Source of the DNA: a virus
IMG/VR virus record: IMGVR_UViG_3300032087_000579
Span: 1 to 35,062 of that record
DNA: 35,062 nucleotides
Strand: one strand, 5' to 3'
A program made the position numbers and the translations under genes. The notes under the pieces were generated by a model, which worked only from the letters and a program-made list of their open reading frames with translations, had not been told where the DNA came from and ran no database searches. Below, in pieces: positions 18,593-29,838 of the stretch (position 1 is its first letter; the number at the start of each line of letters is the position of its first letter).

Positions 18593-19717
18593 ATTAAAAA
18601 ACTTGCAATTATAGGTAAAGGTACTGCGGGTTCTTTTGCCTTGAATCATTTTTCTTATTATACAAATTCAAAAGAATTGGAAATTGTTTGTTATTACGAT
18701 AGCAATATAAAGGAGCAGACCGTAGGAGAGGGAACTACGGTTGATGTTCCTGAAACTTTATACAATCAACATAAATTAGAGTTTCACGATATTTTTGAAA
18801 AGCTGAACGGTCATTTTAAAACGGGTATTTACTATAAGGGCTGGGGTAAGCAAAATTATATGCATACTTTCCCAATGCCTAATGTTTCAATTCACTTCAA
18901 CGCGGTAAAGCTTCAAAACTTGTTGCAAGAATTAAATAAAGACCGTGTAAAGTTTATTGATAAAAATGTTGAACATAAAGATATTGACGCCGACTTTATT
19001 CTTGATTGTTCTGGTAAGCCTAAAACTAATGAAGCTTTTAACAAAGCTAAATACATACCCGTTAATTCTGTTGTTGTTGCCCAATGTCAATGGGAAGTCC
19101 CAAAGTTTTATTACACAATTTGTGAAGCTTATAAAAATGGTTGGATATTTGGTATTCCCTTACAAGATAGAATTAGCTTTGGTTATCTTTACAACGAAAA
19201 TTTAAATGACAAAAACTTTATTGAACAAGAACTTAAAGAATATATTGACGGTTTTAATTTAAAAGTTAATCAAGTTAATTATTTATCTTTTGGTAATTAT
19301 TACCGTAAAGTAAATTATTTTAAACGCGGTGCTTTTAATGGTAATGCAAGCTTCTTTCTTGAACCAATGGAAGCTACAAGTATCGCTACAATCGACGATA
19401 TTAATAGAAATGTTTATGATTTATTGTTTGAAATAAATACATTAAAAAATATAAATAAAAAATATAACGAGTGGTTTAAACAAGTTCAAGATGTTATTAC
19501 TCTGCATTATCTTGCTGGTAGTAAATACGATACAGACTTTTGGAAGTTTGCTAAAGAACTTGCTTTTGATTGTGTTGAAAATAAATCTGATTTATACAAA
19601 CAAATAATTAAAAATCTTGACAATGAACATTTTGATTTTAATGGTAATTATGGAACTTGGGGTATGCACTCTTTTAGGCAAAACGTTTCAGGGCTGGGAA
19701 TTTCTAATTTACTATGA
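18593..19717 (+). CDS. Flavin-dependent (tryptophan-type) halogenase, ATT start
   Basis: 374 residues if it starts at ATT 18593. These enzymes use FADH2, O2 and halide to halogenate an aromatic substrate. The FAD-binding GKGTAG is at 8-13 and the VGEGTTVDVP motif at 44-53. The candidate catalytic Lys is K76 (HFKTGIYYKGW) and the catalytic Glu is in LEPMEATSI (Glu257). The family WxWxIP is altered to WIFGIP (184-189). Starting at the first in-frame TTG (18641) would delete the FAD loop. No ATG, GTG or TTG lies between the upstream stop (18581-18583) and the loop. AAGGA is 6 nt before ATT. A marine viral halogenase (VirX1 of a cyanophage) is a known relative type. Substrate unknown. Confidence 0.85.
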   Translation: MKKLAIIGKGTAGSFALNHFSYYTNSKELEIVCYYDSNIKEQTVGEGTTVDVPETLYNQHKLEFHDIFEKLNGHFKTGIYYKGWGKQNYMHTFPMPNVSIHFNAVKLQNLLQELNKDRVKFIDKNVEHKDIDADFILDCSGKPKTNEAFNKAKYIPVNSVVVAQCQWEVPKFYYTICEAYKNGWIFGIPLQDRISFGYLYNENLNDKNFIEQELKEYIDGFNLKVNQVNYLSFGNYYRKVNYFKRGAFNGNASFFLEPMEATSIATIDDINRNVYDLLFEINTLKNINKKYNEWFKQVQDVITLHYLAGSKYDTDFWKFAKELAFDCVENKSDLYKQIIKNLDNEHFDFNGNYGTWGMHSFRQNVSGLGISNLL

Positions 19718-23618: not shown

Positions 23619-24227
23619 ATGGCTGAACAATTTGCGGAAGTTGATGTAAGGGATTTAAAAGAATATCCTGACAACGCTCGTATCGGCGACGTAATTGCAA
23701 TTTCTGAATCTCTTTTAGAAAATAAACAATACCGCCCTTTAGTCGTCAATCGTAAAGACAATGTTATTCTCGCTGGTAATCATACTTACCGTGCTATTAA
23801 ACGCTTAGGCTGGGCGAAAGCTCTTGTCTGGTATGTTGATGTTAATGACCAACAAGCAAAACAAATTGTACTTGTTGATAATAAATTAAATGACGACGCA
23901 ACTTACGATTATGAAAAACTTGAAAAAGCTATTAAAGAATTACAAGATGTTGGAGAGTTAATTGGTTCTGGTTATACGGCTGATTCGGTTGCTGAACTGC
24001 TGGATAATGTTGAGGCGGAAGTTCCGTTTATTCCGCCTCAACGCCCTAAAGCTGAAGCTAATGTAACTCCTGTATTAGATATCGTTCTTTTGTTAAATGA
24101 CGAAAAGTTTGATAAATATAAAACTGCTATAAATATTATTTCTGATTATTTTAAATGCAATCCAACTACGGCTGGTTTAAAAGCCGTCGAGCTTTACGCA
24201 AAGAAAGTTGAAGCAAATGAAGTATGA
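23619..24227 (+). CDS. ParB/Srx-fold nucleotide-binding domain protein 1
   Basis: 202 residues. The ParB N-terminal pattern is clear: LKEYPDNAR (13-21), QYRPLVVNRKDNVILAGNHTY (37-57, with GNHTYRAI at 53-60) and KQIVLVDNKLNDDATYD. No HTH domain of plasmid partition ParB follows, only ~80 residues of helices. ParB-fold proteins bind CTP or ATP, and phage copies often accompany DNA-modification genes. AAGGAATTT precedes ATG. The next gene is a diverged paralogue, so duplication has occurred. As first genes of the modification operon they may activate a substrate or guide enzymes on DNA. Both roles are inference. Confidence 0.82.
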   Translation: MAEQFAEVDVRDLKEYPDNARIGDVIAISESLLENKQYRPLVVNRKDNVILAGNHTYRAIKRLGWAKALVWYVDVNDQQAKQIVLVDNKLNDDATYDYEKLEKAIKELQDVGELIGSGYTADSVAELLDNVEAEVPFIPPQRPKAEANVTPVLDIVLLLNDEKFDKYKTAINIISDYFKCNPTTAGLKAVELYAKKVEANEV

Positions 24228-24927
24228 AATAAAAGAAGTTGATATTAATTCTTTAAAAGAATTTCCTAACAATCCTCGTTCTAGTGATTTAGAACCTATA
24301 AAAATATCTTTAGAAAAACACGGGCAATATCGTCCGCTAACTGTAAATCAACACAACAATCAAATTCTTACTGGTAACCATACTTGGCTTGCTATGAAAG
24401 AACTTGGCTACAAAACTTGTAATGTAATGTTTGTTGATGTCGATGAAAATAAAGCACGTAAAATTGTTCTTGTTGATAATCGTATGAACGAGCTGGCTTC
24501 GTACGATAAATCTAAATTATCTAATATGCTTGGCGACCTTATGGAGCTGGGCGAATTGTTTGGTACTGGTTATTCTGCTGACGAAGTTGATAATATGTTT
24601 GCTGAAACTGAACAATTAGAGGAAACTGACTTCGAGGAATTTACTGGTGGTTTTGCTTTGAGTGAGGACGAAATCGCCGACATAGAAAAACGCATACAAA
24701 CGCCTACTGAAAAAAAATCGAGCGAACGCCTTAATGAAATTATTTTGGCTTTATATAAAGAGGAATACGATAAGTACCAAGAAAATATACAAATAATTTC
24801 TAATGGTCTTTCCATAGGAACTACTGAAGCTTTGTTCTTATCTGTTATTACTTTGGCTGACGAAATATCAGCTGGTCAAGTTAATCGTCCTACTTTGTTA
24901 AATAAAATATTTAAAAGTGGAAATTAA
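24217..24927 (+). CDS. ParB/Srx-fold nucleotide-binding domain protein 2
   Basis: 236 residues from ATG 24217. It repeats the motifs of its neighbour: LKEFPNNPRSSD (13-24), QYRPLTVNQHNNQILTGNHTW and KIVLVDNRMNELASYDKSKL. It has a longer acidic C-terminal half (EETDFEEFTGGFALSEDE) and a helical end. Overlaps at both ends (11 bases with the previous gene, 11 with the next) make the three genes a tight translational unit. An upstream TTG at 24208 is an alternative start. No partition HTH is visible. Confidence 0.82.
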   Translation: MKYEIKEVDINSLKEFPNNPRSSDLEPIKISLEKHGQYRPLTVNQHNNQILTGNHTWLAMKELGYKTCNVMFVDVDENKARKIVLVDNRMNELASYDKSKLSNMLGDLMELGELFGTGYSADEVDNMFAETEQLEETDFEEFTGGFALSEDEIADIEKRIQTPTEKKSSERLNEIILALYKEEYDKYQENIQIISNGLSIGTTEALFLSVITLADEISAGQVNRPTLLNKIFKSGN

Positions 24928-25789
24928 AGACGAACAAGTCTTTGTCGATTATTTAGAATTTCATAATAATCAAATGCTATCTAAAGATATTGACCCTGTT
25001 TATCCTGTCCTTAAATACACTTTGGATTCTTTAAATTTAAATATTGAACAGAAAATGTGGTGTATTCTTTTGTACGTTGCTTATTACCAAATTGGTTCTG
25101 GGTTTAAAGCTTTTGAGGAATATCCATTTATTGAAGTTCCCGATACCTGCTTGTCTTTACCGTGCGAAACTGAAAGGCGTAATCATCGCGTACCCGAAAG
25201 GCTTGCAAAACATTTTGAAAGCATTGTTGATGTAGCTTATTGGAACGGTAGTTTATTTTCTTATTTCTCTAAAGGCTTTACTTTTAATAGACGTGAAAAT
25301 TGGCTTCTATTAAATGAAAGGTTAATGAAGTTCTGGGGTAATGGTCGCTGGGCTGGTTATAAAACTGCTGAAATATTTATGAAAGTTCTTGACTTTGATG
25401 TTGAACCTACTGATATGGGACACAATGGAGCGTCTGGCTCTAGGCGTGGTCTTGAAATATTATTTAATAATGTGCCGTCTGGTAATTCCAGTAATGATAT
25501 TAAGGAACTTGATTTATTAAGTAATGAACTTGTCCTAACTATGAACGACCGAGGATATCACGCAACTATTGAAACTGCTGAAACATCTCTTTGTGATTTT
25601 AATTCTAAATTAAAAGGGCGATACTATACGGGAATTGATATTGATAAAATGCAAACCGCCTTAAAAGAAGTACCTAGCAAATATACGGATTTATTATTTG
25701 AAGCTCGTAAAGAAACTTTACCACATCAATTTCTTGGCGAGTTAAATAATTGGGACGGTGTAAGGAAAGATGTTAAGCTTCGGTCTTGA
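24917..25789 (+). CDS. Thymine-hypermodification transferase (AADT / alpha-glutamyl-putrescinyl-thymine pyrophosphorylase-like)
   Basis: 290 residues, GTG start overlapping the ParB-like gene. The key region is WGNGRWAGYKTAEIFMKVL (140-158) followed by HNGASGSRRGLEILF (169-183). It resembles the DNA-glycosylase-like helical family that displaces the (pyro)phosphate from activated 5-hydroxymethyl-uracil in DNA with an amino acid or polyamine ('w.AY...DL.......GpGSrRGL'). Aravind and colleagues named the group aGPT-Pplase, and members in phages with modified T were later shown to be amino-acid:DNA transferases. Assignment is from motif memory. The adjacent kinase and dioxygenase strongly support it. 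The amino acid used cannot be read from sequence. Confidence 0.72.
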   Translation: MEIKDEQVFVDYLEFHNNQMLSKDIDPVYPVLKYTLDSLNLNIEQKMWCILLYVAYYQIGSGFKAFEEYPFIEVPDTCLSLPCETERRNHRVPERLAKHFESIVDVAYWNGSLFSYFSKGFTFNRRENWLLLNERLMKFWGNGRWAGYKTAEIFMKVLDFDVEPTDMGHNGASGSRRGLEILFNNVPSGNSSNDIKELDLLSNELVLTMNDRGYHATIETAETSLCDFNSKLKGRYYTGIDIDKMQTALKEVPSKYTDLLFEARKETLPHQFLGELNNWDGVRKDVKLRS

Positions 25790-26633
25790 ATTAGAACTTC
25801 CTGATATTGATACCTCTGTTGAAATACCAGAGGAACTTGGCTCGTACGATAGGCAAGATTATACAATCGTAAATAATTGCGGTGTTGCAAATGACAATTT
25901 AAAAAAATTTGTATTAATTGGTTCTGAAATAAATACAACTCCTACTGAAAGTGTTATTGAACAATTACATATTGTTGAAAAGCTTTACAAATTGTTTGAT
26001 ACAAAAACAAATCATAAAAGTAATTTGCATATTCACGTGGGCGTTAATGATATGTTGCACTCGGTTGAAATGATTAAAGAGTTTCAATTCTATGTAAATA
26101 AATACGAGGACTTTGTTTATTATTTTATAGACCCAATGCCCGTTCCTAATTCTGAATTAATGAGGCAAAGAATTGCACACGTAAGAAAATCACATCAAAC
26201 TAAATTAACTCGTGAAGCAAAGAAACTAATTGCAACTGCGCGTAATCACTCTCAATTAAGGAATGCTCTTGCCGTTAATCGTATTAGTAGGCGAGCTGGT
26301 ATAAATTTAAAAAGCTTGTATTCAAATGGAACGATTGAATTTAGACATTTTTTTGGAACAGACGATATACAAGAATATGCTTCCGCTCTTGTCTGGTGTG
26401 AGCATTTTGTTAAGTGCTTTCTTTCTCAAAGAAATCCATTTGCAAGTTTTGAAAGTATGAATTTAAAACTACCGCGTATGGCTGAGTTCAACGAAACTTT
26501 ACAACTTGGTTTTGAATTTACAAATAAAAAAGTTAAAGAAAAATTTGGAGAAGCTGAATATCTTAAACGCTTACAATTTATGAAAGAAAGGGGAAAAGTT
26601 GAAGCCAAACATCTTGGTAGTATGTTCGGGTAA
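25770..26633 (+). CDS. Amidoligase (glutamine-synthetase-fold COOH-NH2 ligase)
   Basis: 287 residues. All marks of the Amidoligase_2 family are present: FGLELEL (4-10), GSEINTTP (51-58, Glu53), NLHIHVG (85-91, His87/His89) and NGTIEFRHFFGT (186-197, Glu190/Arg192). These enzymes use ATP to join a carboxylate to an amine. It starts in an overlap of 20 bases with the transferase gene, with AAGGA before ATG, so it is made with the modification enzymes. I infer it may extend an amino-acid-bearing base, or a small precursor, through an amide bond. Peptide or protein tagging is the alternative role seen for other members. Confidence 0.85.
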   Translation: MLSFGLELELPDIDTSVEIPEELGSYDRQDYTIVNNCGVANDNLKKFVLIGSEINTTPTESVIEQLHIVEKLYKLFDTKTNHKSNLHIHVGVNDMLHSVEMIKEFQFYVNKYEDFVYYFIDPMPVPNSELMRQRIAHVRKSHQTKLTREAKKLIATARNHSQLRNALAVNRISRRAGINLKSLYSNGTIEFRHFFGTDDIQEYASALVWCEHFVKCFLSQRNPFASFESMNLKLPRMAEFNETLQLGFEFTNKKVKEKFGEAEYLKRLQFMKERGKVEAKHLGSMFG

Positions 26634-26997
26634 TATAAATCGTTCTGCCGTTGCCGAACAAATGTTTAAAGACAAAGGTTATACAAATGTTGATTCGGCT
26701 GGGTTAGGTAAAGGCGCGTTAAAAGGTCTGCCCGCTACTAAAAGAATTATGAACGCGTATGGGAAATTTTTTGAACACAAAAGTAAGCAAGTTGATTTCT
26801 TGTTAGTTGAGTGGGCTGACGTTATTTATTGTATGGGTAGTGGTCAAGTAAGTAAGCTCAATAAAAAGTTCTTAACTAACAAAGCTCGTAGGCTGGCTGA
26901 TTACAATATTGCTGACCCGCATTTTACGAAAGAATATGCGCTAGCGGTTGTTCAAATTAAAAAAGAAGTAGAAAGGATATTATGCGAATTGGAATAA
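26599..26997 (+). CDS. Low-molecular-weight phosphotyrosine-phosphatase-fold protein
   Basis: 132 residues from TTG 26599 (GGGGA upstream). The P-loop is ILVVCSGNINRSAVAE: Cys9, five residues, Arg15, Ser16. The general acid is Asp106 in IADPHF. The fold is complete, so it should be an active phosphatase or arsenate-reductase-like enzyme. It overlaps the amidoligase gene by 35 bases and the FAD gene by 16. Such enzymes are rare in phage modification clusters as far as I know. It may remove phosphate from a modified-base intermediate or recycle a by-product. Host-protein dephosphorylation is the alternative. Confidence 0.85.
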   Translation: MKPNILVVCSGNINRSAVAEQMFKDKGYTNVDSAGLGKGALKGLPATKRIMNAYGKFFEHKSKQVDFLLVEWADVIYCMGSGQVSKLNKKFLTNKARRLADYNIADPHFTKEYALAVVQIKKEVERILCELE

Positions 26998-27767
26998 TTG
27001 GAAATGGAATAGCTGGCTCTATGGCTAAAAAGATTGCTATTAAAAATGGTTATGAAGCAAAAATTCACTCGACCAATAGAGATGTTGCTTCTCGTTCTGC
27101 GCTGGCTACGATACGTCCTACTTGGTTTTCAAAAGACCAAAGGGCAAACATTGAGGAAAGCTGGGCTTGGTATGAGGAATTTGGCGCTACTGTAACTCGT
27201 TCCGCTTGGGTAAGTAGTTGGCGTAATGATAAAGTCGTTGAACAGGATTCGTGGTGGCTGGTAAATCCATTAAGCGTTTTAGAAGCTCCTGATTATCTTT
27301 CTGAAGTTTGGCATATTGACCAGATTAAAAGGTTTGGCTATGACGCGGTGCTTGACGCTCGTGGTATAAATTTAAATAAAAATCTAAATAAGTTCTGGGG
27401 AGCTACGTTGGTAAGTAGGTCTGCTGAAATGTTAAACGCTCCGTACCGTGTTCATCACGTCCGCCCATATCATTCTATTCAAATTGTAAAAACTGACGGA
27501 GCCGTTCGTCTGGGTTCAAGCATAAGTAAAGATAAAGAAAAATGTAAGCTTCAAGTATTTGATATGTTGGACTTGGCTGAAAAACTTGGGTTAGTGTCTG
27601 AAGTTAATGATTGGTCTTTGTCTATGGGCGTTAGGACGCAAACTGTAAGTAAAGATGTTATCGTTCCAAGTGTGAAAGAAAATTTTACTTCTATTGGTGG
27701 CTTGCATAGAGTTGGCTATGGTCTTGCTCCGTCTTTAATTGCTAGGTGGCTTGATTCGTTATGTTAA
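26982..27767 (+). CDS. FAD-dependent oxidoreductase, DAO/glycine-oxidase-like
   Basis: 261 residues. The dinucleotide fold starts at once: MRIGIIGNGIAGSMAKKIAI (GxGxxG at 7-12). SALATIRPTWF (36-46) sits where amino-acid oxidases carry their flavin-contact loop, and the end has IGGLHRVGYGLAPSLIARWL, the usual second FAD motif. It is shorter than typical DAO enzymes (about 350-400). In thymidine-hypermodifying phages a FAD enzyme acts on the amino acid already joined to the base, giving an aminomethyl product. That reaction is my leading hypothesis. AAGGATATT precedes the start. Confidence 0.75.
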   Translation: MRIGIIGNGIAGSMAKKIAIKNGYEAKIHSTNRDVASRSALATIRPTWFSKDQRANIEESWAWYEEFGATVTRSAWVSSWRNDKVVEQDSWWLVNPLSVLEAPDYLSEVWHIDQIKRFGYDAVLDARGINLNKNLNKFWGATLVSRSAEMLNAPYRVHHVRPYHSIQIVKTDGAVRLGSSISKDKEKCKLQVFDMLDLAEKLGLVSEVNDWSLSMGVRTQTVSKDVIVPSVKENFTSIGGLHRVGYGLAPSLIARWLDSLC

Positions 27768-28318
27768 ATACTTTTTATATTATTGGCGCTCCAGCGTGCG
27801 GTAAATCTACTCAAATGGAAAAAATAATGCACGGCTGGGAAGTTGTTGAACAATTTACGAAGCCAATTAGATACACCGTGTATCGTTCTGGTAAAAACTT
27901 AAATATATATTTAGGTAAAAAGCACGAAGTTTTTTCTGGTACCGATACTCTTTCTTTTACTGCAATTAAGTTTATGAACGGTTTGTATTCTGCTTGGTCA
28001 AGTCTTGAGAAAATTAATTGCGTTGTTGCTGAGGGCGATAGGTTGGCTAATGCAAAGTTCTTTGATACTGCTAAACGTTATGGCGATTTACATTTGTTAA
28101 GTTTAGAACTTGACGAACTTGTTCGTAATGAACGTGCTGAAGCTAGGGCAAAGGCAAACAATTTAGATGTCCAGAATTATGAGTGGGTTAAATCTCGAAT
28201 AACAAAACATAATAAACTTGCTGAACAATATGGCGCTTATCGGATAGATTGCACTGGTAAAGGTAAAGATAAAGTCTTTGTGGAAATTGCTGAAAAATTT
28301 AGTAACATTGGGTTATGA
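27761..28318 (+). CDS. P-loop kinase, probable 5-hydroxymethyl-uracil DNA kinase
   Basis: 185 residues. Walker A is GAPACGKST (9-17). A later CVVAEGDR segment (about 87-94) serves as Walker B-like acidic site. Basic residues in RNERAEARAKANN form the lid-like region. The size and gene company fit the phage 5-hmdU DNA kinases, which phosphorylate the hydroxymethyl group in DNA to activate it for the transferase. The sequence alone would only say small P-loop kinase. ATG 27761 overlaps the FAD gene by 7 bases and its stop overlaps the next start (ATGA). Confidence 0.72.
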   Translation: MLNTFYIIGAPACGKSTQMEKIMHGWEVVEQFTKPIRYTVYRSGKNLNIYLGKKHEVFSGTDTLSFTAIKFMNGLYSAWSSLEKINCVVAEGDRLANAKFFDTAKRYGDLHLLSLELDELVRNERAEARAKANNLDVQNYEWVKSRITKHNKLAEQYGAYRIDCTGKGKDKVFVEIAEKFSNIGL

Positions 28319-28476
28319 ACGCACTAATTGAATTAATTAAACAAATAGATATAAGTAAATATAGTCAAGACGAATTTAGAGCGATTGTCGATGAAATTGT
28401 TTTGCATTGGAAAGCTAATAACTTTGATAAGGTTCTTGATAAGTCTGGCTGGCTAGACATTGGGGGTTCTGGTTGA
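28315..28476 (+). CDS. Small hypothetical protein inside the modification operon, 53 aa
   Basis: Coupled on both sides: ATGA with the kinase stop, and its last bases contain the TTG of the dioxygenase gene. The product MNALIELIKQIDISKYSQDE is helical and ends WLDIGGSG. No family is recognised. Retention between two modification enzymes with strict overlaps suggests a small subunit or adaptor of one of them. Confidence 0.65.
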   Translation: MNALIELIKQIDISKYSQDEFRAIVDEIVLHWKANNFDKVLDKSGWLDIGGSG

Positions 28477-29336
28477 TTGATATAAGGTTAAGAAAAAAAA
28501 TTTCTCAAGAGGAGCTTGACCAAAAAAAAGGCAAGATACTTACTGACGAGGATTACAATTTATTAATTCATAAAGATACTACCGTGCGTGGTTTAGACGG
28601 TCGCGTAATTGCCGTCTTTCAAAAAGGTGTTATACCTGATTCTATTGTTGAGGAAACTTACGAAACTTTACACGAATTAAAAGGTTATCAAACTAACAAT
28701 AGAGGTCTTGCTTCTGGAACTCCGCGCCTTACTAAGAAACAGGGTATGCGTTCTGCTTCTGCTAAAAGTATTTCAAGCGCTATTGTTGGAAGCTTCGACG
28801 CTATGGGCGCAAAACAATATTGTAGGCTTACTGCGTTTAGTGGTCGTGAAATGGACAAGTATAAAAAGCTCTTTCCTCTATTTGTCTTTATTGGCGACGA
28901 AATGAAAAAGGTAGCACCCGATAGATACAACGCTCAAATGGAATTTGTTAATCGAACTCATCAAGATTGGGTTATTCCTAATACGCCATTTACTACGGTA
29001 ACTGTTAATAACTCCTACCCTACTGGCGTTCATACCGACAAAGGCGATTTAGACGAGGGTATCTCTACTCTTGCTTGTATTAAAAAAGGCGATATAGCTG
29101 GTGGGTATTTGGTTCTGCCTGAATATCGTATTGCTTTTAAAATGGAACATAAAGACTTGCTTATCTTTGACGCTCACCAATGGCACGGAAATACAGAGCT
29201 AATTAAAAATACTGAGGACGGCGAACGTATTTCTGTTGTTTGTTATTACCGTACCCGTATGGAAAATTGTGATTCTATGGAAAGCGAATACATTAAACGC
29301 TTAAAGGTTCAAGAAAAAAAATTAGTTAATGATTGA
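28473..29336 (+). CDS. TET/JBP-family 2-oxoglutarate/Fe(II) dioxygenase
   Basis: 287 residues. The jelly-roll metal site is readable: GVHTDKGD (His187, Asp189), FDAHQWHGNTE (distal His, probably His238) and ERISVVCYYR (2-oxoglutarate-binding Arg, probably Arg252). ARLTAF-like and STLACIKKGDIAGGYLVLPEY segments match TET/JBP proteins, which hydroxylate the 5-methyl group of thymine or 5-methylcytosine in DNA. Since I see no cytosine methyltransferase and the neighbours are thymine-type enzymes, thymine to 5-hydroxymethyl-uracil is the likely reaction. Start TTG 28473 follows GGGGG. Confidence 0.85.
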   Translation: MIDIRLRKKISQEELDQKKGKILTDEDYNLLIHKDTTVRGLDGRVIAVFQKGVIPDSIVEETYETLHELKGYQTNNRGLASGTPRLTKKQGMRSASAKSISSAIVGSFDAMGAKQYCRLTAFSGREMDKYKKLFPLFVFIGDEMKKVAPDRYNAQMEFVNRTHQDWVIPNTPFTTVTVNNSYPTGVHTDKGDLDEGISTLACIKKGDIAGGYLVLPEYRIAFKMEHKDLLIFDAHQWHGNTELIKNTEDGERISVVCYYRTRMENCDSMESEYIKRLKVQEKKLVND

Positions 29337-29838
29337 GTGGGAGCCTAACGAATCCTACGCCGAATTTAAAGCTCGCAAATATGCTGGGCGTTCTGGTATG
29401 GGACAACCAAATTCTAATAAACGTATGGCGGGTAAATGTCCTAACACGGACGAAATTAAAACTAAGTGTAGTTGCCGTACTTGTATCAATAGACGTAATC
29501 GTTCTAAAGGTAGGCGCAAACAAAATCTAGCTCGTAAAAAACTAGGAATACCAGATAATCGTTTTCACGGTGCTGACGCTCACGAGGAAAATTGGGCTAC
29601 AGGTTTAAGGGTTGAAGTTAAAGCTGGAAAACAAGTGGAGCCTTTAAAGAAAATATTTTATAAAAGCAAATTACAATCTGATACTTCACATAGGGCTTTC
29701 GGTGGTATGGGCAAACCGTTTATTCAAGTGTCTATGCCTGACGGTTCCTCTAAAGGTATTGTTAGTTTTGAACTTGACGATATTGAAAATGTTTGTGTTG
29801 AGGTTTTGAAAAACTTTGGTTACGAATTTGGGGATTGA
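29329..29838 (+). CDS. Cys-rich, PD-(D/E)XK-like putative nuclease
   Basis: 169 residues, last solid gene of the rightward set. It has a Cys cluster (CPNTDEIKTKCSCRTC at about 35-50) followed by a very basic helix (INRRNRSKGRRKQNLARKK). Then comes GADAHEENWATGLRVEVKAGKQ (about 82-103), where Asp84 or Glu86 with Glu-Val-Lys could form a PD-(D/E)XK site. The end is a beta-alpha unit (GKPFIQVSMPDGSSKGIV). It reminds me of an uncharacterised actinophage protein family. Holliday-junction or Vsr-like nuclease activity is possible. It starts within the dioxygenase gene's end and could be part of the modification operon. Confidence 0.55.
   Translation: MIEWEPNESYAEFKARKYAGRSGMGQPNSNKRMAGKCPNTDEIKTKCSCRTCINRRNRSKGRRKQNLARKKLGIPDNRFHGADAHEENWATGLRVEVKAGKQVEPLKKIFYKSKLQSDTSHRAFGGMGKPFIQVSMPDGSSKGIVSFELDDIENVCVEVLKNFGYEFGD

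What the first reader, a model, noticed from the sequence alone, without database searches (positions are those of the whole stretch)
23619..29336. Thymidine hypermodification operon built on a TET/JBP dioxygenase
Seen: in one overlapping series lie two ParB-fold proteins, an AADT/aGPT-Pplase-like transferase (GASGSRRGL motif), an amidoligase, a Cys-x5-Arg phosphatase, a FAD oxidoreductase, a P-loop kinase, a 53-aa protein and a TET/JBP dioxygenase with HxD...H...R. Known: phages such as ViI and M6 make hypermodified T by 5-hmU kinase plus amino-acid:DNA transferase plus tailoring enzymes, from hmU made before replication. Inference: here T is hydroxylated in DNA, phosphorylated, joined to an amino acid and tailored. 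Gene order is nearly the reverse of the proposed reaction order. I do not know of a characterised pathway with this full set.
Basis: partly seen in the sequence, partly recalled or inferred. Interest (0 to 1): 0.93.

Follow-up and report, generated by a model that had tools for sequence, protein, structure and literature searches.

The report
Phage thymine-remodelling operon, TET type
A small bacterial virus carries a ten-gene operon that most likely turns ordinary thymine in its finished DNA, step by step, into an amino-decorated base, probably to hide from bacterial DNA-cutting defences; the core is a recognised type of system, but the last, amide-forming branch has not been described as far as I could find.

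Summary
Window 23619-29838 holds ten overlapping + strand genes: two ParB-like proteins, amino acid:DNA transferase (ADDT, PF18724), Amidoligase_2, LMW phosphatase, FAD enzyme, P-loop kinase PF18751, a 53-aa protein, Tet_JBP dioxygenase, and a 169-aa protein. The genome is apparently complete (91-bp terminal repeat), with no cytosine-C5 methyltransferase and no dUMP hydroxymethylase. The FAD model's best three matches among 350,542 PDB chains are the phage N-alpha-glycinylthymidine lyase NGTO. Comparative scans (~180 ADDT loci) show a ParB-TET-ADDT-kinase core. TET and a thymidylate-synthase-like enzyme replace each other (45 versus 3 of 48 records, no overlap), which points to hydroxymethyluracil. 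FAD lyase and a glutaminase (GATase II) also exclude each other across two ADDT clades. Best reading: T -> hmU (TET, in DNA) -> phosphate -> N-glycyl -> 5-aminomethyl-dU -> amide made by the amidoligase. Steps before the amide rest on homology and gene swaps; the amide step and the phosphatase's role are inference. The TET-based core was already proposed (phage Tonitrus). The amidoligase-phosphatase branch recurs in many other phage contigs and seems undescribed: a new variant of a known kind.

The parts
23619..24227 (+). ParB-like protein 1 (202 aa), first gene of the operon
   Evidence: PHROG_723 2.2e-38; Pfam ParB_N 0.0019, below cut-off; ParB accompanies TET in 82 of 86 loci with room, 0 of 7 thymidylate-synthase-type loci
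24217..24927 (+). ParB-like protein 2 (ATG at 24217; TTG at 24208 possible)
   Evidence: Pfam ParB_N 4.7e-7; PHROG_723 8e-42
24917..25789 (+). Amino acid:DNA transferase (ADDT), predicted glycinyl transferase onto 5-phosphomethyl-dU
   Evidence: PF18724 1.2e-19; M6 ADDT is in the same family; profile matches PDB 8z2m 'Glycinyltransferase'
25770..26633 (+). Amidoligase_2, glutamine-synthetase/gamma-GCS-like carboxylate-amine ligase
   Evidence: PF12224 2e-9; model pLDDT 93.9; top fold matches glutathione synthetase and gamma-glutamylcysteine synthetase
26599..26997 (+). LMW-PTP-type phosphatase, catalytic residues intact
   Evidence: PF01451 1.6e-11; alignment A6; found only beside the amidoligase in the loci studied
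26982..27767 (+). FAD enzyme, predicted N-alpha-glycinylthymidine lyase (makes 5-aminomethyl-dU)
   Evidence: AF2 model; best three PDB matches 8z79_C, 8z79_A and 8z2o = NGTO; profile top PDB hit the same lyase
27761..28318 (+). P-loop kinase (Ploopntkinase3), predicted 5-hmU DNA kinase
   Evidence: PF18751 8e-18; in L113 the same family sits with a thymidylate-synthase-like enzyme instead of TET
28315..28476 (+). 53-aa protein of unknown role, just upstream of TET in this backbone
   Evidence: Conserved in glycosyltransferase- and ADDT-type relatives, absent from the GNAT-type ones
28473..29336 (+). TET/JBP 2-oxoglutarate/Fe(II) dioxygenase, predicted thymine hydroxylase acting on DNA
   Evidence: PF12851 1.5e-28; HxD...H...R intact
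29329..29838 (+). 169-aa protein coupled to TET by stop/start overlap; unknown
   Evidence: Overlap seen directly; conserved after TET in the relatives

Best explanation
The operon is a post-replicative thymidine hypermodification pathway. (1) TET/JBP, probably guided or loaded by the ParB-like proteins, hydroxylates the methyl group of T in phage DNA to 5-hmU. (2) The PF18751 kinase phosphorylates the hydroxymethyl group. (3) ADDT displaces the phosphate with glycine, giving N-alpha-glycinyl-T. (4) The FAD lyase removes the glycine carbons, leaving 5-aminomethyl-dU. (5) The amidoligase uses ATP to join a carboxylate, probably of an amino acid such as glutamate, to that amine, giving an amide; in sister operons a GNAT acetyltransferase takes this place. 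The phosphatase serves the amidoligase branch in an unknown way. The product would protect phage DNA from host nucleases. Shown here: gene families, intact active-site motifs, predicted fold of the FAD enzyme, and recurring gene swaps. Inferred: all chemistry, order and purpose. Rough confidence by step: T as target 0.8; hydroxylation in DNA 0.85; kinase 0.75; glycine 0.65; lyase 0.7; amidoligase acting on the amine 0.5; phosphatase role unresolved.
For: Families. ADDT family shared with M6 and related to a solved glycinyltransferase. FAD model's nearest solved structures are the glycinylthymidine lyase NGTO, and an undoubted NGTO (L129, E 7e-37) lies with M6-type genes and matches the FAD profile made without it (29 bits). 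Target T: among 48 records of ADDT-type or FAD-type loci, 45 have Tet_JBP, 3 have a thymidylate-synthase-like gene, none both, none neither; L113 keeps ADDT and PF18751 kinase but has that gene in place of TET, with the Asn-containing motif shared with M6. No C5-methyltransferase in the window or 15 relatives, and in only 6 of 48 wider records above cut-off. Window apparently complete: 91-bp terminal repeat. Amine logic: one ADDT clade carries the FAD lyase or a FAD-position gene (84 of 93 loci), the other a class II glutaminase (83 of 85), never both; all 19 amidoligase+ADDT loci have an amine-generating partner. GNAT occupies the amidoligase-LMWP place in L030 and L048-L057.
Against: No modified base has been measured. 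The PF18751 kinase and this TET clade have no biochemistry that I could read. The window ADDT alone matches the solved M6-type ADDT only weakly (E 0.0033), so glycine is not certain. FAD identity to NGTO is 16%. The amidoligase could act on the glycine carboxylate instead of the amine; 19 of 19 with an amine-generating partner is weak, because most ADDT loci have one anyway. Loci were gathered by similarity and are not independent.
Confidence: 0.65

Rival explanations
1. Same pathway, but the amidoligase activates the carboxylate of the transferred glycine and joins it to a free amine or ammonia; the FAD enzyme then acts on a side pool or a different substrate.
For: ADDT products carry a free carboxylate; Amidoligase_2 is a carboxylate-amine ligase; some amidoligase loci (L132, L135, L145, L146) lack the FAD lyase.
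Against: Those four loci all carry a glutaminase that tracks the divergent ADDT clade, not the amidoligase (79 of 80 further loci of that clade, only 2 with amidoligase), so ammonia seems to feed the transferase. In the window amidoligase and lyase lie in one overlapping series, and the lyase would destroy the carboxylate substrate.
Confidence: 0.2
2. Cytosine hypermodification: TET oxidises host- or phage-made 5mC to 5hmC, and kinase, ADDT and the rest decorate hmC.
For: Some phage TETs are reported to act on 5mC beside C5-methyltransferases (own knowledge, Burke et al. 2021, not read). TAGT-family glycosyltransferases, which swap with this cassette, include an enzyme acting on cytosine in T2/T6 (PMC13216743).
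Against: No C5-methyltransferase in the window or 15 relatives and few in 48 more; swap with an M6-type thymidylate-synthase-like gene; every characterised ADDT pathway I know of acts on hmU.
Confidence: 0.1
3. The hydroxylation-kinase-ADDT-lyase core works and stops at 5-aminomethyl-dU; amidoligase and phosphatase act elsewhere, for example on a host protein or metabolite.
For: Most relatives lack the pair; in L097 and L101 it lies about 6 kb from the core; L136, L137 and L143 hold amidoligase without ADDT in the stretch fetched.
Against: The pair sits inside the ADDT-FAD interval in many unrelated contigs and accompanies both TET- and thymidylate-synthase-type pathways; GNAT takes the same place.
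Confidence: 0.15

Closest known systems
M6 / PaMx11-type thymidine hypermodification (Pseudomonas phages)
   Same: ADDT of family PF18724; FAD enzyme fold of NGTO; kinase-then-transferase logic (PMC6449724)
   Different: hmU is made before replication by a thymidylate-synthase-like enzyme and phosphorylated by HMUDK; the window has neither and uses TET and PF18751 instead
TET-type system of Rhodococcus phage Tonitrus and Gordonia, Mycobacterium (Acadianvirus) and Microbacterium phages
   Same: ParB, TET, ADDT and PF18751-type kinase; FAD enzyme in Phelemich and Kozie; annotated as thymidine hypermodification in Tonitrus (PMC11955845)
   Different: No amidoligase or LMW phosphatase there; TET and ADDT only about 20-40% identical to the window's
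TET + TAGT glycosyltransferase phages (base-J-like logic)
   Same: Same backbone, with ParB, 53-aa protein and TET about 70-90% identical
   Different: TAGT (PF20691) takes the place of the ADDT...kinase cassette, presumably giving glycosylated hmU
CmoX/CmoY amide-forming cytosine hypermodification (Synechococcus phage S-B43, PMC12783734)
   Same: An ATP-dependent ligase forms an amide on a DNA base; ParB-like proteins nearby
   Different: Carboxymethylcytosine, with a ligase of the asparagine-synthetase type; unrelated enzymes and base

Membership tests
M6/ViI-type thymidine hypermodification | ADDT / aGPT-Pplase transferase | tested here: met
   PF18724 1.2e-19 in window; 1.4e-46 in M6
M6/ViI-type thymidine hypermodification | Thymidylate-synthase-like dUMP hydroxymethylase | tested here: not met
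   PF00303 absent from the window, found in M6
M6/ViI-type thymidine hypermodification | 5-hmdU DNA kinase HMUDK (PF18748/PF18723) | tested here: not met
   Window kinase is PF18751; M6 has HMUDK
M6/ViI-type thymidine hypermodification | Modified T in virion DNA | not testable with these tools
   Needs LC-MS
N-alpha-glycinylthymidine FAD lyase (NGTO) | Fold and sequence similarity to NGTO | tested here: met
   Best three of 350,542 chains; profile E 7e-5 over residues 3-66 only; 16% identity, so activity is unproven
TET/JBP dioxygenases | PF12851 above cut-off and HxD...H...R | tested here: met
   99.5 bits against cut-off 34.9; residues intact
TET-type thymidine hypermodification (Tonitrus type) | ParB + TET + ADDT + P-loop kinase in one gene cluster | tested here: met
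   Window and L036-L038
Phage 5mC-TET hypermodification | C5-methyltransferase encoded with TET | tested here: not met
   No PF00145 in the apparently complete window genome or 15 relatives
Amidoligase_2 (PF12224) | Curated score and GS-like catalytic residues | tested here: met
   38.1 bits against cut-off 22; invariant E, H, R, N; gamma-GCS-like fold, low TM-scores
LMW-PTP phosphatases | PF01451, C-x5-R and DP motif | tested here: met
   substrate unknown

The most novel reading that the evidence does not exclude
A new DNA base: an amide-linked amino acid (for example gamma-glutamyl) on 5-aminomethyl-deoxyuridine, made wholly inside DNA from ordinary thymine by TET, kinase, glycine transferase, FAD lyase and a glutathione-synthesis-like amidoligase, within a modular scheme in which TET or a thymidylate-synthase-like enzyme supplies hmU, glycine-plus-lyase or glutaminase-derived ammonia supplies the amine, and GNAT or amidoligase caps it.
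Probability: 0.4. Interest if true: 0.85.

Novelty: new variant of a known kind. Interest (0 to 1): 0.7.

Why it matters
If true, phages have a second, in-DNA entrance to thymidine hypermodification that can be put before the same downstream chemistry, so a phage that relies on the host replisome can use it. It would make phage TETs of this kind thymine hydroxylases with a clear product, predict at least three end states (free amine, acetyl, amide), give a testable role to the ParB-like proteins (they follow TET, not the tailoring genes), and supply enzymes for building functional groups onto thymine in DNA.

Tried and rejected
Cytosine target: searched for C5-methyltransferase; absent. Reading the gene order as reaction order: rejected, order varies. 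GATase as the amidoligase's ammonia source: tested with a scan of the divergent ADDT clade; the GATase follows that ADDT clade (79 of 80), not the amidoligase. Single-sequence searches of the FAD and amidoligase proteins against PDB and viral contigs gave little and were replaced by profiles. phmmer of the LMW phosphatase found YwlE (arginine phosphatase), YfkJ and Wzb; no role could be settled. M6 ORF L042:12439-13119 is not the FAD lyase. The gene in the FAD position of L113 ('u17') shows only a weak Rossmann match to the FAD profile. In alignment A4 the row L039:1826-2689 turned out to be the FAD protein, not TET, so its conservation line understates TET conservation. Papers that would have helped (Iyer 2013, Lee 2018 and 2022, Wen 2024, Burke 2021) are not held, so what I say of them is from memory, apart from PDB titles and citing text.
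Full report
What is there. The window is a virus record of 35,062 bases with a siphophage head-tail module at 1.4-18 kb and an exact 91-bp direct repeat at its ends, so it is probably a complete, circularised genome of about 34,971 bp. Ten + strand genes from 23619 to 29838 overlap one another. Pfam and PHROGs place them as ParB-like, ParB-like, ADDT, Amidoligase_2, LMW phosphatase, unassigned, Ploopntkinase3, a 53-aa protein, Tet_JBP and a 169-aa unknown.

The FAD enzyme. It has no Pfam match. A profile of four relatives hit, as best among all PDB sequences, the phage 'Flavin-dependent lyase' 8z2o/8z79, but only over residues 3-66. An AlphaFold2 model from 31 relatives (pLDDT 93.9) gave as its best three matches 8z79_C, 8z79_A and 8z2o, titled 'N-alpha-GlyT FAD-dependent lyase gp47/NGTO', ahead of D-amino-acid and glycine oxidases. 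The M6-type locus L129 carries an undoubted NGTO (E 7e-37) with a thymidylate-synthase-like gene, HMUDK, ADDT and GNAT. The window protein is therefore most likely a glycinylthymidine lyase, at 16% identity.

Which base. In ADDT- and FAD-type records, TET and a thymidylate-synthase-like gene are alternatives: 45 have Tet_JBP, 3 have PF00303, none has both and none has neither. Two of the three PF00303 records are near-identical M6-type contigs, but the third, L113, is independent and keeps the window's kinase family PF18751 next to ADDT with no TET. Its substrate-binding Asn motif is that of M6. C5-methyltransferases are absent from 16 records including the window and above cut-off in 6 of 48 others. 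This favours hydroxymethyluracil. The window has a replication-initiator-type gene and no thymidylate-synthase-like gene, which also suits hydroxylation after replication.

Swapped cassettes. In one phage backbone (lysozyme-like gene, ParBs, 53-aa gene, TET, 169-aa gene, replication gene) the stretch between ParB and TET holds a TAGT glycosyltransferase (PF20691), a kinase alone, ADDT-GNAT-FAD-kinase, or ADDT-amidoligase-phosphatase-FAD-kinase. TET stays about 67-94% identical across these, so its substrate is presumably the same.

Wider scan. The ADDT scan gave 80 loci, nearly all with ParB, TET and PF18751 kinase, most with FAD. The amidoligase scans found the amidoligase-phosphatase pair in L105, L125, L130, L134, L135, L138-L141 (TET type where the core is visible), L145 (thymidylate-synthase type) and L147, and amidoligase without the phosphatase in L132, L142 and L146. 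L105, L139, L140 and L141 have exactly the window's order.

Two ways to an amine. Four amidoligase loci without FAD lyase (L132, L135, L145, L146) all have a class II glutamine amidotransferase beside a divergent ADDT. I first saw it in L132 and L135, then looked for it in L145 and L146, and it was there. A scan with that ADDT clade gave 79 of 80 loci with the glutaminase, none with FAD lyase, and only 2 with amidoligase. Over all loci: FAD or a FAD-position gene in 84 of 93 of one clade, glutaminase in 83 of 85 of the other, never both. The simplest reading is that one clade transfers glycine, later trimmed by the lyase, and the other transfers ammonia; both would reach 5-aminomethyl-dU. The amidoligase, whose fold is nearest to gamma-glutamylcysteine and glutathione synthetases (low TM-scores), would then cap the amine. 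This is inference; that all 19 amidoligase+ADDT loci have an amine source is weak because most ADDT loci have one.

ParB. Among loci with room on both sides, 82 of 86 TET-type loci have a ParB-like gene, 0 of 7 thymidylate-synthase-type loci. ParB thus follows in-DNA hydroxylation, suggesting a DNA-loading or targeting role for TET; contigs are related, so this is not a corrected statistic.

Phosphatase. It occurs in 14 of 19 amidoligase+ADDT loci and not without amidoligase in the loci studied. Its substrate is unknown.

What is known. PMC6449724 describes hmU, then kinase, then transferase in M6, ViI and phi W-14. PMC11955845 annotates ParB, Tet-like, aGPT-Pplase2 and kinase in Tonitrus as thymidine hypermodification. 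Gordonia, Mycobacterium and Microbacterium phages carry the same core. PMC12783734 shows amide formation on a modified cytosine by unrelated enzymes. I found no description of an amidoligase-phosphatase branch, or of the TET-glutaminase type, in the library, but key papers are not held.

Verdict. Real, and well supported as a TET-driven thymidine hypermodification operon; a new variant of a known kind, with a predicted amide-capped base as its most novel and least certain part.

Noticed in passing
L149-L228 (e.g. L150:4402-8412): A large set of environmental phage contigs carries ParB-TET-GATase II-ADDT-kinase, with the glutaminase next to a divergent ADDT clade in 79 of 80 loci; possibly direct amination of phosphomethyl-dU.
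   Followed up: partly
window 18641-19717: Tryptophan-halogenase-like protein (PF04820 7.5e-32), after the tail genes, also in L029; role in a phage unclear.
   Followed up: no
window 29329-29838: 169-aa gene coupled to TET, conserved in about 28 relatives, no family match; an 'EVK' segment may hint at a nuclease fold.
   Followed up: no
window 28315-28476: 53-58-aa protein between the cassette and TET, kept across glycosyltransferase and ADDT types but lost in GNAT types.
   Followed up: partly
L006-L023, L028, L029, L032: TAGT glycosyltransferase next to an about 70-90% identical TET: candidate phage makers of a base-J-like glycosylated hmU.
   Followed up: partly
L136:7099-11208: Three amidoligase-related ORFs in one contig without ADDT in the stretch fetched.
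   Followed up: no
L113:8896-9792, L036, L037, L106, L109, L111, L117, L123: 'u17' family takes the FAD gene's place in ten ADDT loci; only a weak Rossmann-type match to the FAD profile.
   Followed up: partly
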